Assembly: GCA_016282685.1 (NCBI GenBank)
Contig: JAEELM010000036.1
Coordinates: 1 to 64,000 of the forward strand
Origin: Elusimicrobiaceae bacterium
Lineage (GTDB): Bacteria; Elusimicrobiota; Elusimicrobia; Elusimicrobiales; Elusimicrobiaceae
Direction: 5' to 3'
Length of the DNA stretch: 64,000 nucleotides
In this document: positions 36,593-41,713 of the stretch, in pieces
How positions within the stretch are numbered: position 1 is the first letter of the stretch
How the letters are laid out: the number at the start of each line of letters is the position of its first letter
Made by a program: the position numbers and the translations under genes
The notes under the pieces: generated by a model
What the model was told of the DNA's origin: nothing
The model's input: only the letters and a program-made list of their open reading frames with translations
Databases searched by the model: none

Positions 36593-37762
36593 ATGCCCAA
36601 GGTGGTTTATTTAGATAATAATGCTACTACCCAATGTTCTCCGGCGGTAGTAGAGGCCATGTTGCCCTATTTTTCGGAGAAATACGGTAATGCTTCCAGC
36701 ATGCACAATTTCGGGGGGGAAAATCGCCACGTAATCGAGGCCGCCCGCCATCAAGTAGCCCAACTTATCAATAGCGCCTATGATGATGAAATTATTTTTA
36801 CCTCTTGCGCTTCGGAGAGTGATAATACGGCTATTTTTTCCGCTGTACGTTCTTATCCTCATAAAAAACATATCATCACATCTGCGGTGGAGCATCCGGC
36901 TGTTTTAGAACCTTTTAACTATTTAGAATCGCAAGGATACCGGGTAGACCATATCGGAGTAGATGAAAAAGGGCGTTTTAATTTAGAACAACTTAAACAA
37001 GTAATTGACGAGGAAACGGCAATTGTATCGGTTATGTGGGCCAATAGTGAAACAGGAACGATTTTCCCGATTGCTGAGATTGCCAAAATTGTGCATGAGC
37101 ATGGGGCTATTTTTCACACAGATGCGGTACAAGCAGTAGGAAAAATACCGGTAGACGTGCAAGCAGCCGGAGTAGACATGCTCTCTCTTTCCGCTCACAA
37201 ATTCCATGGGCCCAAAGGGGTAGGGGCGCTTTACGTAAAAAGAGGAACTCGCTTCTTGCCGTATCTGATGGGCGGGCACCAAGAAAAGCACCGTCGTGCC
37301 GGTACGGAAAATGTGCCCTATATTGTAGGGTTGGGCCAAGCTGCCGTGTTGGCACAGCAACGTTTAAAAGACGGTACTATGCAGAAAGTGGCCGCCTTGC
37401 GTGATGAATTAGAGCAAGGCATTTTGTCCATGATTGGAGACGTCAAACTAAACGGAGATCCGGAACACCGTGTTCCCAACACTACCAATATCAGCTTTGG
37501 GTACATTGAAGGGGAATCTATTTTGATGTTCTTAAACGAATTTGGTATTTGTGCATCTTCCGGTTCTGCCTGCACTTCCGGTTCTTTGGAGCCCTCTCAT
37601 GTGTTGCGTGCCATGAAAGTTCCTTTTCAATTTGCGCATGGTTCTATCCGCTTTTCGTTGTCGGATCAAACCACCCGGGAAGAAATTGCGCTTGTGCTTA
37701 AAGAGTTGCCGCCTATCATTAAGCGGTTACGTGAAATTTCGCCGTTTTCAACAATGAAATAA
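36593..37762 (+). CDS. nifS: Cysteine desulfurase NifS
   Basis: 389-residue fold-type I PLP enzyme of the NifS/IscS group. YLDNNATTQCSPAVVEAM (start), EHPAV, HTDAVQAVGK, PLP lysine in SLSAHKFHGPKG (about 203) and active cysteine in ICASSGSACTSGS (about 326). It releases sulfur from cysteine to NifU. It is cotranscribed with nifU. Confidence 0.96.
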   Translation: MPKVVYLDNNATTQCSPAVVEAMLPYFSEKYGNASSMHNFGGENRHVIEAARHQVAQLINSAYDDEIIFTSCASESDNTAIFSAVRSYPHKKHIITSAVEHPAVLEPFNYLESQGYRVDHIGVDEKGRFNLEQLKQVIDEETAIVSVMWANSETGTIFPIAEIAKIVHEHGAIFHTDAVQAVGKIPVDVQAAGVDMLSLSAHKFHGPKGVGALYVKRGTRFLPYLMGGHQEKHRRAGTENVPYIVGLGQAAVLAQQRLKDGTMQKVAALRDELEQGILSMIGDVKLNGDPEHRVPNTTNISFGYIEGESILMFLNEFGICASSGSACTSGSLEPSHVLRAMKVPFQFAHGSIRFSLSDQTTREEIALVLKELPPIIKRLREISPFSTMK

Positions 37763-37788
37763 TTCCAACGCCTTATAAAGGAGAATCT

Positions 37789-39255
37789 ATGAAAAAAACC
37801 AGTCTATTGTTAGCTGTGCTTCTCGTTTTTCCATTGTTGATCAGTGCTAAAACGACTACCCTTTATCACACCAGTGATGTGCATGGGTTTTTTTATCCGC
37901 GGGATGGAAAAGGGGGATATGCCTCCTTGGCGGCTGTGTTGGAGAAGGAAACGCATCCTTATTTGCTGTTAGATAGTGGGGATTTCGCAAACGGTACGGC
38001 AGAAACACGTTATTCCAAAGGGTTAAAAGCCGCTGCAATGATGAACAAAATGGGATATGATGCTACCACAGTGGGCAACCATGAGTTTGATTTTAAAGAA
38101 AAGGGTTTTTCCCCGTTGATTGCCCAATTAAACTTTCCTGTATTAGCGGCTAATTTCTTTGAAAAAGATTCTATGAAGTATCCGCCGCACATTCAGCCCT
38201 ATCAGATTTATGATGTAGATGGCGTGAAAGTGGCTGTTATCGGTTTAGCGAACCGTAATCCTACCGACACCGTTACCAGTTATTACTTTACCAAGCCGTT
38301 TGACGCATTAGAAAATGCGTTGGCAGAAGTAGAAAAACAACACCCCAGCTTTGTAGTGGTTTTGGTGCATGATTCTATTGCGGACGATAAACATGGAGAA
38401 AAACCTTATGTGTTGGAAATTGCGGACAAATTTTCCGGCCGTGTGCACGTTGTATTAGGAGGACATGCCCACCAAATCATTCAAAACCGTTATGCTAACG
38501 GTGTCTTATTTGTGGAAAGCGGTTGTTATTTGAACAACGTGAGCAAAATAACGGTTCAGACAGATGATAAAACCGGAAAATTTGTAAGTGCAAAATCCCA
38601 ACTGATTCCTTTAATTATTGCCCAAACGGGAGAAAATGAGGAAATCAAAAAATTTGCAGATCAGTTGCGTGAACCCGGGATTGATGAAGTTGTTGGTACG
38701 ACGGAAGCTGTGCTTGAAAAAAACCCCATTTCTAAAGACCAACTGGATTCCCCACTTAACGATTGGGTGGCCGATTTGATGCAAGTTTATAGCGGGGCTC
38801 CTATTGCTATTCACAATAACGGCGGTGCGCGTGTCAGCTTACCTAAAGGTACGATTACCAAACGTGATTTGGTGGAATTGCATCCGTTTGATAACGAAAT
38901 AACGATGGTAACAGTTGACGGTAGATTTTTGAAGAAATTTATTAAAACCGGTTTTGCACCACGCAGTTTATTTACTTATTCCGGTTTGGACATCACTTAC
39001 ACGACCGACAAAAAAGGGCGTATCAAAGATATTCGTACGTTATTTAACGGTAAACCGCTTGAAAATAACAAGCAATATACCATTGTTACTAACTCTTATA
39101 TTGCCAACGGCGGAAGCGAAGGATACCTGTTTAAGAAAATCCCTAACGAGAAAAAACGTAAAGTTGGTACAAAGACCGTTCGCACACTGGCGGAAGAAGC
39201 GGTTCGTGAGGGTAAGACCCAGGTTCCTCAAACGGGGAGAATTCACAGAATCTAA
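37789..39255 (+). CDS. Secreted 5'-nucleotidase/2',3'-cyclic phosphodiesterase (UshA family)
   Basis: 488 residues with signal peptide (1-20). The metallophosphatase domain has its two-metal ligands: D30/H32 (HTSDVHG), D65 (DSGDFANG), N97/H98 (GNHEFD), H194 (LVHDS), H226/H228 (GGHAH). C-terminal nucleotide-binding domain with NNGGARVSLPKG (about 343-354) and ELHPFDNEI. Predicted periplasmic or extracellular nucleotide scavenger. It is followed with a 1-nt overlap by a paralogue lacking these ligands. Confidence 0.92.
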   Translation: MKKTSLLLAVLLVFPLLISAKTTTLYHTSDVHGFFYPRDGKGGYASLAAVLEKETHPYLLLDSGDFANGTAETRYSKGLKAAAMMNKMGYDATTVGNHEFDFKEKGFSPLIAQLNFPVLAANFFEKDSMKYPPHIQPYQIYDVDGVKVAVIGLANRNPTDTVTSYYFTKPFDALENALAEVEKQHPSFVVVLVHDSIADDKHGEKPYVLEIADKFSGRVHVVLGGHAHQIIQNRYANGVLFVESGCYLNNVSKITVQTDDKTGKFVSAKSQLIPLIIAQTGENEEIKKFADQLREPGIDEVVGTTEAVLEKNPISKDQLDSPLNDWVADLMQVYSGAPIAIHNNGGARVSLPKGTITKRDLVELHPFDNEITMVTVDGRFLKKFIKTGFAPRSLFTYSGLDITYTTDKKGRIKDIRTLFNGKPLENNKQYTIVTNSYIANGGSEGYLFKKIPNEKKRKVGTKTVRTLAEEAVREGKTQVPQTGRIHRI

Positions 39256-40748
39256 TGTGGAAACGGTGGAAAGTTTATAGTATCCTATTTTGTGCCTGTT
39301 TGGCGGGAGCATGCGGAAACGAAGAATTTCAGCACGTGGATATTTATTTTACAGCGGATACCCTGGGGGGGTATGCCTCCCGTTTGGAGCCGCATGTAAA
39401 TAACCGCGAAGTGGGCGGATATGCTATCTTGAAAAATTTTCTACAAAGTTTGGAAGGACCTTATCTGTTGTTTGATGGGGGAAATTGGTTCGGAGCCGCA
39501 GCAGAAGCCCCGCTGACAAAAGGTGCGTTTGTTACTCCTTTTTTGAAAGAAATCCCTTATACGGCGGCGGTATTAAGCCCCAATGATTTTAGTTATGGTT
39601 GGCCTACATTGCGGGGGTTAGTGCGGGAGTTGCCGTATCCGTTCGTGGCGGCTAATTTACGTTTGGAAAATTCTATTCCATGGCCTCTGCATGATTATCA
39701 AATTCGAACCGTAGGAAATATCAAAATTGGTATTTTTGGTTTAGCCAATTTGCCGCAGGTACATGGCAAAGATGTCCGTTTGCCGGGAATGAGGGCGGAA
39801 GACCCTGTTCAAATTGCCCAAAAAATGTCTACCTTGTTACATGAAAAACAAGTAGATTATGTTATTTTGCTTAGTTCGTTGGGCTTACAGCAAGAAAAGG
39901 AAAACAACGATACCGTTTTGGCGCAGGAAGTAGAAGGTATTAATCTAATTCTGCAATCCAACCAGGACCGGGAGCAATTTGAAACGGAAAAAATTAACCA
40001 AACTTTTTTGGTTTACCCCGGTTCTCACTTAGACAGTATTGCGCATATACGCATTTCGTTTGATAAAAATAAAAAAGTGTTAAACACTTCTTTCAACGAT
40101 ATTTTATTAGCCAAAGACACTTATGGGGAAAACAACGCACTTTCGGTACGTGCTTCCTCTTTACGGAAAGAAACGGCCAATAAAATGAAACAAAAAGTCA
40201 CTTCCACGGTGGAGGAAATTCCCAATTATTTGGATAAAGAATCTCCCCTGGGGATATTACTGGCTCAATGTTTACATAAATGGGCCAAATTAGACGGAGC
40301 TATTTTAAATGCGGCCTCTATCCGTCAATCTTTACCTAAAGGCGATATCATAGAGTATGACGTTTATAAAATGTATCCCTATGGAGATAACATCACATTG
40401 CTAACGCTCAAGGGTAGCGTGTTGTTGAAGGCTTTGCAAATGTCCGTCAACACAGAGGACAATTTTCCACAAGTAGCCGGTATGGATGTGAAATATACAC
40501 GGCTGGATTCCGGCAAATTGGTACAGCGGATTATACTGGGCAATGGTAGGATTGTCCGTCCAAATGATACTTACCGTATAGCGGTAACAGATCATATTTT
40601 GGCGGGTGGTTTTGGCCATGATGAATTTATCAATGCTTTAGAATTCAAAAATACGTTTGTAGATGCGCGCCAAATTATGCGCGCTTGTCTATTACGCCAA
40701 AAACAAATAGCCGCGCCTACTTACCACCATTTTCAGGAAATCAAATGA
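39255..40748 (+). CDS. Catalytically degenerate UshA-like lipoprotein
   Basis: 497 residues, aligned along its length with the gene just before. Lipobox-like CLAGAC (C20) suggests a lipoprotein. The metal ligands are largely gone: FTADTLGG (D35 kept, H to L37), GGNWFG (D to N77), SPNDFSYG (N110 kept, H to D111), LLSSLG (H lost), and no GGHAH (LILQSN there). The C-terminal domain keeps its outline (LNAASIRQSLPKGDI, MYPYGDNITLLTL, LAGGFGHDEF). The frame is open throughout, so it is probably a binding or partner protein rather than a pseudogene. Its ATG overlaps the upstream TAA, so the two are coupled. Confidence 0.8.
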   Translation: MWKRWKVYSILFCACLAGACGNEEFQHVDIYFTADTLGGYASRLEPHVNNREVGGYAILKNFLQSLEGPYLLFDGGNWFGAAAEAPLTKGAFVTPFLKEIPYTAAVLSPNDFSYGWPTLRGLVRELPYPFVAANLRLENSIPWPLHDYQIRTVGNIKIGIFGLANLPQVHGKDVRLPGMRAEDPVQIAQKMSTLLHEKQVDYVILLSSLGLQQEKENNDTVLAQEVEGINLILQSNQDREQFETEKINQTFLVYPGSHLDSIAHIRISFDKNKKVLNTSFNDILLAKDTYGENNALSVRASSLRKETANKMKQKVTSTVEEIPNYLDKESPLGILLAQCLHKWAKLDGAILNAASIRQSLPKGDIIEYDVYKMYPYGDNITLLTLKGSVLLKALQMSVNTEDNFPQVAGMDVKYTRLDSGKLVQRIILGNGRIVRPNDTYRIAVTDHILAGGFGHDEFINALEFKNTFVDARQIMRACLLRQKQIAAPTYHHFQEIK

Positions 40749-41713
40749 CGCTCATTCGCCCGTTACGTATCGGTACGTTTACTGCCAAAAATAATTTGCT
40801 GTTGGCTCCTATGGCCGGAATTACCGATTCGCCTTTTCGCATTTTGTGCTTAAAAGGAGGGGCCGGCATTGTATGTGCGGAAATGGTATCTGCCCATGCC
40901 CTTCACTATGGAAATCCCAAAAGCGGACGTATGTTGCATGTGAATCCTCGGGAGCATCCCGTTTCCATGCAGATTTTCGGTTCGGATGAACAAACCATTG
41001 CCCAAGCTGCCAAAAATGCGCAAGACCAAGGGGCGGATATAATAGATTTGAATGCCGGTTGCCCGGTAAAAAAAATCAATAAAGCAGGGGCCGGGTGCGT
41101 GCTAATGAAAGACGAGGCCAAACTGGGCCGTTTGTTAGAGGCAGCCGTAAAAGCCGTTACAATCCCCGTTACTCTTAAAACACGTATTGCCTTAAATCAT
41201 CAGCAATTATTGGCAGTCCGTTTGGCAAAACTGGCCGAAAGTGCCGGGGCCAGTGCCATTACGTTACATGCGCGTGTGGCATCAGATGTCCATTCCGGTC
41301 CGCCCAATATAGCGGCCGTAGCCGAAGCTTGCGCAGCAGTTAAAATACCGGTCATTGGCAATGGCGGGATTGTGAATGGAACTGTAGCCAAACAGTTTTT
41401 ACAGGCCGGTTGCGCAGGTGTAATGATTGGCCGTGGCGCTATAGGGAATCCGTTTATTTTTCAGGATATTATTGCGGAAATAGGAGGGCAGACACCTGCC
41501 CCTATTACGCCCCAAAAACGTTTGGAAATTTATCTTGCCTTGATTCAAGAAAACATATCTTACTATGGGGAAAAAATCGGGATTAACCGTAGCAGAAAAA
41601 CAGCCGGCTACTGGATTAATCACTTCCCCAATGCGGCAGAAGTGCGGGGTGCTTTTGTGCGCTTGGATAAACTGGCCGATATTGAAAGATTGTTTCGGTC
41701 GGTCCGTTTTTGA
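40745..41713 (+). CDS. tRNA-dihydrouridine synthase (DusB-like)
   Basis: Start set at ATG 40745, overlapping the previous TGA (322 aa). FMN TIM-barrel of the Dus family: LLLAPMAGITDSPFR (start), EMVSAHAL, MQIFGSDEQTIAQAA, DLNAGCPVKKINKAGAG (catalytic Cys about 100), TLHAR, VIGNGGIVNG (about 202-211), GVMIGRGAIGNPFIF. It reduces uridines in tRNA D-loops. The motifs fit the bacterial DusB group. It is translationally coupled to the UshA-like gene, though the functions look unrelated. Confidence 0.93.
   Translation: MTLIRPLRIGTFTAKNNLLLAPMAGITDSPFRILCLKGGAGIVCAEMVSAHALHYGNPKSGRMLHVNPREHPVSMQIFGSDEQTIAQAAKNAQDQGADIIDLNAGCPVKKINKAGAGCVLMKDEAKLGRLLEAAVKAVTIPVTLKTRIALNHQQLLAVRLAKLAESAGASAITLHARVASDVHSGPPNIAAVAEACAAVKIPVIGNGGIVNGTVAKQFLQAGCAGVMIGRGAIGNPFIFQDIIAEIGGQTPAPITPQKRLEIYLALIQENISYYGEKIGINRSRKTAGYWINHFPNAAEVRGAFVRLDKLADIERLFRSVRF

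What the first reader, a model, noticed from the sequence alone, without database searches (positions are those of the whole stretch)
39255..40748. UshA paralogue that has lost its metal ligands but stays intact
Tandem with a fully equipped 5'-nucleotidase and coupled by a 1-nt stop/start overlap, this lipoprotein keeps the two-domain outline but lacks most ligands (H to L37, D to N77, H to D111, the GGHAH histidines gone). Its long open frame argues for selection on a non-catalytic job, such as capturing nucleotides or regulating its partner.
Basis: partly seen in the sequence, partly recalled or inferred. Interest (0 to 1): 0.55.

Follow-up and report, generated by a model that had tools for sequence, protein, structure and literature searches.

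The report
Conserved lipid-anchored dead 5'-nucleotidase partner
A membrane-anchored protein shaped like a nucleotide-cleaving enzyme, but stripped of its metal-binding active site, has been kept under strong selection beside a working copy across a whole order of bacteria, so it probably anchors, helps or controls the working enzyme rather than cutting nucleotides itself.

Summary
ORF 39255-40748 is an intact UshA-fold lipoprotein, TAATG-coupled to an active-looking 5'-nucleotidase (37789-39255); it keeps 1 of 9 metal/catalytic residues. One detail is off: the catalytic His aligns with N110, not D111.

It is not a local curiosity. The same "live, then dead" gene pair occurs in 74 of 76 Elusimicrobiales genomes examined at locus level, in two families; loci from other orders had a live enzyme without a dead partner. 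All 68 near-full-length dead copies have a lipoprotein-type Cys. Purifying selection is strong (omega 0.037-0.136 in unsaturated comparisons). The predicted fold is confident.

The dead gene is probably not a recent tandem duplicate: it shares a Cys pair and a Trp with the class's single-copy live enzymes, not with its neighbour, so the original enzyme may have died after another copy took over. Trees lean that way but do not decide.

Best reading: a non-catalytic, membrane-anchored partner of the soluble nucleotidase. Nucleotide capture is a rival: the base clamp is rebuilt and frozen in this genus but lost in the sister family. A rate-covariation test for partnership was negative. A published census lists Elusimicrobiota as lacking ushA-like genes.

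The parts
37789..39255 (+). Live partner: secreted UshA-like 5'-nucleotidase, 488 aa, signal peptide without lipobox, nine of nine metal/catalytic residues
39253..39257 (+). TAATG: stop of the live gene overlapping the start of the dead gene by one base
39255..40748 (+). Dead 5'-nucleotidase homologue (lipoprotein), 497 aa
39255..39314 (+). Signal peptide and lipobox LAGAC; lipid Cys20 at 39312-39314
39357..39365 (+). Former DxH motif: D35 kept, L37 in place of His (E or Q in 34 of 35 genus copies)
39483..39488 (+). Former GD ligand: N77, followed by W78 (GNW motif)
39579..39593 (+). Former NHEFD catalytic loop, now PNDFS (residues 109-113)
39876..39878 (+). Former His ligand, now S208
39960..39968 (+). 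Former GHxH ligands, now N236 and D238
40233..40616 (+). 5_nucleotid_C domain (PF02872), residues 327-454
40269..40271 (+). C339, half of a conserved Cys pair (likely disulfide, inferred)
40686..40688 (+). C478, other half of the Cys pair
40380..40388 (+). Remodelled base clamp: Y376 and D378 in place of F429 and N431 of UshA
40593..40595 (+). Remodelled base clamp: H447 in place of F498 of UshA
40745..41713 (+). Next gene, dihydrouridine synthase (Dus), start codon overlapping the dead gene's stop (ATGA); part of the same gene string in the genus

Best explanation
The gene encodes a lipid-anchored pseudoenzyme of the UshA/CD73 5'-nucleotidase family. Shown: it keeps the fold and a lipoprotein signal, has lost the dimetal and catalytic residues, is under strong purifying selection, and lies directly behind, and overlapping or almost touching, the gene of an active-looking secreted homologue across an order. 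Inferred: it is made together with that enzyme, exported, anchored in a membrane and binds the enzyme (most plausibly through the C-terminal domains, as CD73 dimers do; recalled), so holding it at the envelope and/or setting its activity, while its own metal pocket is free to drift. The dead copy is probably the old class-wide enzyme, re-used as a partner after a second nucleotidase took over catalysis.
For: Pairing: dead gene in 74 of 76 Elusimicrobiales genomes examined at locus level; live gene directly upstream on the same strand in 71 of those 74, and in the other three (G056, G164, G166) a contig end lies at the break. The pair persists in different surroundings: nifU-nifS-pair-dus-rplM in the genus, other neighbours in the sister family. 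Lipid anchor on the dead copy (Cys in 68 of 68, loose lipobox 64 of 68), seldom a lipobox on live ones (13 of 106). Strong purifying selection. Constraint has moved: in live genus copies the N-domain is the more conserved half (mean entropy 1.04 vs 1.30), in dead genus copies the C-domain (1.12 vs 1.28), and former ligand columns are not more conserved than average (P 0.116 genus, 0.873 other genera, 0.989 sister family). No dead partner in the loci read from other orders. The live enzyme's model is nearest closed structures (rmsd 3.7-4.1), the dead one nearest an antibody-bound CD73 (4.2) and intermediate UshA forms (5.8-6.0). Precedent for dead paralogues activating partners: PMC5201418, PMC3663545 (abstracts in listing).
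Against: No direct evidence of binding. Rate covariation between the two proteins beyond control genes was absent (partial r 0.13, p 0.41; 51 branches, 43 used), while each covaried with its other neighbour. Two sister-family genomes (G044, G048) have a live enzyme but no dead gene was found; two dead copies are interrupted (G042, G054). No fusion of the two was seen. The rebuilt and frozen base clamp of the genus would also fit a ligand-binding job independent of the partner.
Confidence: 0.5

Rival explanations
1. A lipid-anchored nucleoside/nucleotide-binding protein: the C-domain still holds a base between Tyr376 and His447 and passes it to the neighbouring enzyme or to uptake, without catalysis.
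For: In the genus the clamp columns are exceptionally conserved (R357, Y376 and D378 in 35 of 35, H447 in 30 of 35; P 0.009 against other C-domain columns); the C-domain is the more conserved half.
Against: In the sister family the clamp is gone (Ser at the F498 position in 17 of 19, R410 position mostly Ala) although the pair is kept there; in other Elusimicrobiaceae genera the Arg is kept in 3 of 14.
Confidence: 0.25
2. An envelope lipoprotein with a new job unrelated to the neighbouring enzyme, kept in the operon for dosage only.
For: No rate covariation with the live gene, but covariation with dus; many family-specific conserved residues away from the old site.
Against: Pairing with a live homologue is kept in two families with different neighbours.
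Confidence: 0.15
3. It is still an enzyme, with a changed metal site or relocated residues.
For: The genus site is still polar (D35, E/Q37, N77, D/E109, K110, N236); some pseudoenzymes have other activities (PMC10211241, abstract and passages).
Against: Ex-ligand columns are no more conserved than average and vary strongly outside the genus; the window species itself has L37 and P109.
Confidence: 0.06
4. A decaying gene on its way out.
For: Two interrupted copies in the sister family (G042, G054) and two genomes without it (G044, G048); shorter, more divergent forms in two genera.
Against: Omega 0.037-0.136 at unsaturated distances; no stop inside the listed same-genus matches; invariant lipid Cys and Cys pair.
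Confidence: 0.03

Closest known systems
Periplasmic and ecto-5'-nucleotidases: UshA (E. coli), CD73, Thermus 5'-nucleotidase (2z1a), E. coli c4898 (3ivd)
   Same: Two-domain fold over the whole length (Z about 31-33, 450-461 aligned residues) and PF02872 C-domain
   Different: Dimetal site and catalytic loop lost; lipid anchor; base-clamp residues replaced (genus) or lost (sister family)
Single-copy live UshA-like enzymes of other Elusimicrobia families (f7, f8, f27)
   Same: Share the C339/C478 pair and W78 (17 of 17 examined); nearest lineage in the first trees
   Different: They keep the ligand motifs and have no dead partner in the stretches read
Activating dead paralogues of trypanosomes (AdoMetDC prozyme, deoxyhypusine synthase)
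   Same: A dead homologue kept beside a live one; works-like analogy only (PMC5201418, PMC3663545, abstracts in listing)
   Different: Eukaryotic, not lipid-anchored, other folds; activation was shown there and not here
NCBIfam NF041198, UshA-like (seleno)protein
   Same: N-domain similarity, E 3.1e-22
   Different: 78.8 bits against a cut-off of 275; 0 of 60 class genomes pass it, and live enzymes match as well

Membership tests
UshA-type 5'-nucleotidase (as an enzyme) | Dimetal ligands and His-Asp dyad (UshA D41, H43, D84, N116, H117, D120, H217, H252, Q254; numbering recalled, residue identities checked on the fetched E. coli sequence) | tested here: not met
   1 of 9 kept in 35 of 35 genus copies
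UshA-type 5'-nucleotidase (as an enzyme) | Base clamp F429/F498 with R410 and N431 (recalled) | tested here: not met
   Genus: R kept, F429 to Y, N431 to D, F498 to H; sister family mostly lost
UshA-type 5'-nucleotidase (as a homology/fold family) | Metallophos-like N-domain plus 5_nucleotid_C domain | tested here: met
   PF02872 in 47 of 47; N-domain not recognised by Pfam but aligned by phmmer and by fold
Pseudoenzyme | Catalytic motifs absent, gene under purifying selection | tested here: met
Pseudoenzyme | No catalytic activity | not testable with these tools
   needs an assay
Bacterial lipoprotein | Signal peptide with lipobox Cys | tested here: met
   LAGAC at residues 16-20; Cys in 68 of 68, loose lipobox 64 of 68; by pattern, no dedicated predictor was run
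Regulatory or anchoring partner of the live homologue (prozyme-like) | Physical complex that changes partner activity or location | not testable with these tools
   No two-chain prediction offered; indirect rate-covariation test negative
NCBIfam NF041198 UshA-like (seleno)protein | Score above the curated cut-off (275 bits) | tested here: not met
   78.8 bits

The most novel reading that the evidence does not exclude
An order-wide two-subunit periplasmic nucleotidase in Elusimicrobiales: the ancestral secreted enzyme died, gained a lipid anchor and became the non-catalytic subunit of a second, soluble nucleotidase; in Elusimicrobiaceae its rebuilt base clamp (Tyr/Asp/His) also makes it a nucleoside sensor that tunes or feeds the partner.
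Probability: 0.2. Interest if true: 0.7.

Novelty: new variant of a known kind. Interest (0 to 1): 0.52.

Why it matters
Dead homologues paired with live enzymes are best known from eukaryotes. An old, order-wide, lipid-anchored example in a bacterial nucleotide-scavenging system would be a clean case, with natural intermediates (G170 keeps 5 of 9 ligands) for studying how an enzyme turns into a partner. The published census of ushA-like genes lists Elusimicrobiota as having none (PMC10454023, passages), so the system appears unnoticed in the papers I could search.

Tried and rejected
(1) Rate covariation of dead and live genes with nifS, nifU and dus as controls gave no excess correlation (27 genomes; a first run failed on a thread setting; FastTree supplied the guide tree). 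(2) Trees place the dead family next to f7/f8 single-copy enzymes (95/95), but holding dead and live genes together is not rejected (AU p 0.064; p 0.173 with ligand and Cys/Trp columns removed), nor is a dead+f7/f8/f27 clade (p 0.341); the ancestry rests mainly on the shared Cys pair and Trp. (3) Kinship with NF041198 considered; live Elusimicrobia enzymes match it too and none reaches its cut-off. (4) A conserved, repurposed metal pocket considered; former ligand columns are not conserved above average. (5) Relaxed selection rejected for the genus. (6) Fold search listed only relatives of this superfamily at the top; absence of others there proves nothing. (7) Literature: searches showed no description of this pair.

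The single genome-contig scan used a pattern holding GNW, so dead copies without it, or in other phyla, could be missed. Rows dropped before counts: fragments under 440 aa from the 68-copy counts (dead copies of G021, G026, G166, G042, G054, G057); four remote ORFs (L216, L218, L220, L221) from the tree; long-branch and surplus rows from the tree, as in its script; eight genomes for missing or cut genes.

Full report
Observation. The window lies in a 1.42 Mb, 49-contig genome. The 66 loci that a scan of named genomes returned for the dead gene's alignment are titled Elusimicrobi- (Elusimicrobium, Elusimicrobiaceae, Elusimicrobiales, Elusimicrobia) or just as an unnamed bacterium, one of them Candidatus Avelusimicrobium. 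ORF 39255-40748 encodes 497 aa and starts inside the stop codon of ORF 37789-39255 (TAATG). Pfam finds Metallophos and 5_nucleotid_C in the upstream protein but only 5_nucleotid_C in this one. Against E. coli UshA (sequence from MG1655) the upstream protein keeps nine of nine metal/catalytic residues, this one only D35. UshA residue numbers are recalled; the letters at those positions in the fetched sequence are the expected ones, and a paper search for them found nothing.

How widespread. In the 36 same-genus genomes searched and the window's own, 37 of 37 have the dead gene with a live gene directly upstream; three are cut by contig ends (G017, G021, G026), and G024's live ORF is shorter, 398 aa. 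Of 15 genomes from other Elusimicrobiaceae genera all 15 have it; of 24 genomes from a second family of the order 22 have it (not G044, G048). In total 74 of 76 genomes examined at locus level; the live gene is directly upstream in 71 of 74 and the other three break at contig ends. Two second-family copies are interrupted (G042, G054). Loci read from other families of the class and phylum (f3, f5, f7, f8, f9, f11, f15, f17, f27) carried a live-looking enzyme without a dead partner beside it. A profile search of 198 genomes of the phylum found relatives, live or dead, in 109.

Ligand loss is old. Ligands kept of nine: 1 in 35 of 35 genus copies; 0-2 in 13 of 14 other Elusimicrobiaceae copies and 5 in G170; 0-4 in 19 second-family copies. 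Live copies keep 8 or 9 in 106 of 106; thirteen genus copies upstream of the pair lack only the dyad Asp. The dead family is one clade (100/100). It has its own conserved features: lipid Cys20, GNW, D111, C339 and C478, D446, E463-F464.

Ancestry. C339 and C478 are both present in 63 of 68 dead copies, both absent in 4, and one row is cut, the pattern expected of a disulfide. In the live enzymes of the order 95 of 96 have neither Cys and one has a single one. But both, with Trp at position 78, are present in 17 of 17 single-copy live enzymes of families f7, f8 and f27, and in none of nine from other families, one of these being cut before position 478. Trees agree in direction but not decisively (AU p 0.064 and 0.173). 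I therefore read the dead gene as the probable descendant of the class's own enzyme and the live neighbour as the other copy.

Selection. NG86 omega among 35 genus genomes: of the 30 pairs listed, the 14 with dead-gene dS at or below 1.1 have omega 0.037-0.136, the dead N-domain alone 0.044-0.159, and the live gene is similar. The highest listed dead-gene values (up to 0.336) are from distant, saturated pairs. Against the nearest relative of the window, G026, whose gene lies in two contig-end pieces, omega is 0.125 and 0.069 with dS near saturation. Amino-acid divergence is on average 1.07-1.46 times that of the live gene (window genome 1.23).

Where the constraint sits. Former ligand columns are not more conserved than other N-domain columns (P 0.116 genus; 0.873 other genera; 0.989 second family), whereas in live genus enzymes no random draw of 20000 was as conserved. 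The C-domain is the more conserved half in dead genus copies (1.12 vs 1.28) and the less conserved half in live ones (1.30 vs 1.04). The four base-clamp columns are frozen in dead genus copies (P 0.009) but not in the second family (P 0.645). The window species and G026 depart from the genus consensus in the old pocket (L at 37, P at 109), again suggesting that the pocket is dispensable.

Structure. The dead protein folds confidently (pLDDT 90.7, pTM 0.85) and matches CD73, c4898, Thermus 5'-nucleotidase and UshA over 450-461 residues, Z about 31-33. The live protein (pLDDT 91.7, pTM 0.84) is modelled nearest closed, ligand-bound structures (rmsd 3.7-4.1 to 1ho5, 9hjg, 4h2i; about 10-12 to open forms). 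The dead protein is nearest 6vc9 (4.2) and intermediate UshA forms 4wwl and 1oi8 (5.8, 6.0), further from closed (4h2i 6.6) and open (7.7-8.5) CD73. This hints that the dead protein no longer closes as the enzyme does, but AF2 domain angles are weak evidence and the two alignments differ in depth (47 and 22 rows).

Mechanism. Shown: coupled genes, fold, lipoprotein signal, ligand loss, purifying selection, order-wide pairing. Inferred: a physical partnership in which the lipid-anchored dead protein holds or tunes the soluble enzyme. Against it: no covariation of rates, no fusion seen, two genomes without the dead gene. Nucleoside capture stays open for the genus. In UshA the C-domain binds the base between two aromatic residues and a 96 degree rotation brings it to the metals (PMC8475336 and PMC10454023, passages), which is why the state of the clamp matters.

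Literature. A 2023 TBlastN census (PMC10454023, passages) lists Elusimicrobiota with neither ushA-like nor cpdB-like genes, counting hits with score above 150 and coverage above 70%. The live protein scores about 85 bits against UshA by phmmer, so a threshold effect is likely. The searches named under Tried and rejected showed no description of the pair. Verdict: real and conserved, a lineage-specific pseudoenzyme family with a plausible but untested partner role.

Noticed in passing
L033:5572-7068, L034:5529-7010, L035:5546-7009 and ten other genus rows: A third UshA-like copy upstream of the pair with GNHEFA in place of GNHEFD, so it lacks only the dyad Asp (13 of 51 live genus rows). In G020 the third copy is split into two ORFs.
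   Followed up: partly
PMC10454023: A published census says Elusimicrobiota lack ushA-like genes; they are common here with full ligands, including in G090 (one contig of 1,643,562 bases).
   Followed up: partly
L003 (G000:C17:35694-37067): Another UshA-like protein of the window's genome with DxHG, GD, GNHDTD and GGHAH motifs.
   Followed up: no
L166:5419-7002 (G170): Dead-family member that keeps 5 of 9 ligands but has lost the GNHEFD loop: a possible intermediate.
   Followed up: partly
L092:6372-7100 and similar ORFs in the second family: Membrane-protein-like ORF of about 215-260 aa directly downstream of the dead gene, before a DnaG-like ORF (recognised by eye); no Pfam match.
   Followed up: no
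L216, L218, L221: Remote UshA-like ORFs with TNSANG and GHSQ motifs in families f3 and f5; may be another partly degenerate branch.
   Followed up: no
window 36593-41713 and genus loci: Relative rates of the dead gene correlate with dus (r 0.52) and of the live gene with nifS (r 0.53), that is with the other adjacent gene and not with each other; unexplained, perhaps local recombination.
   Followed up: no
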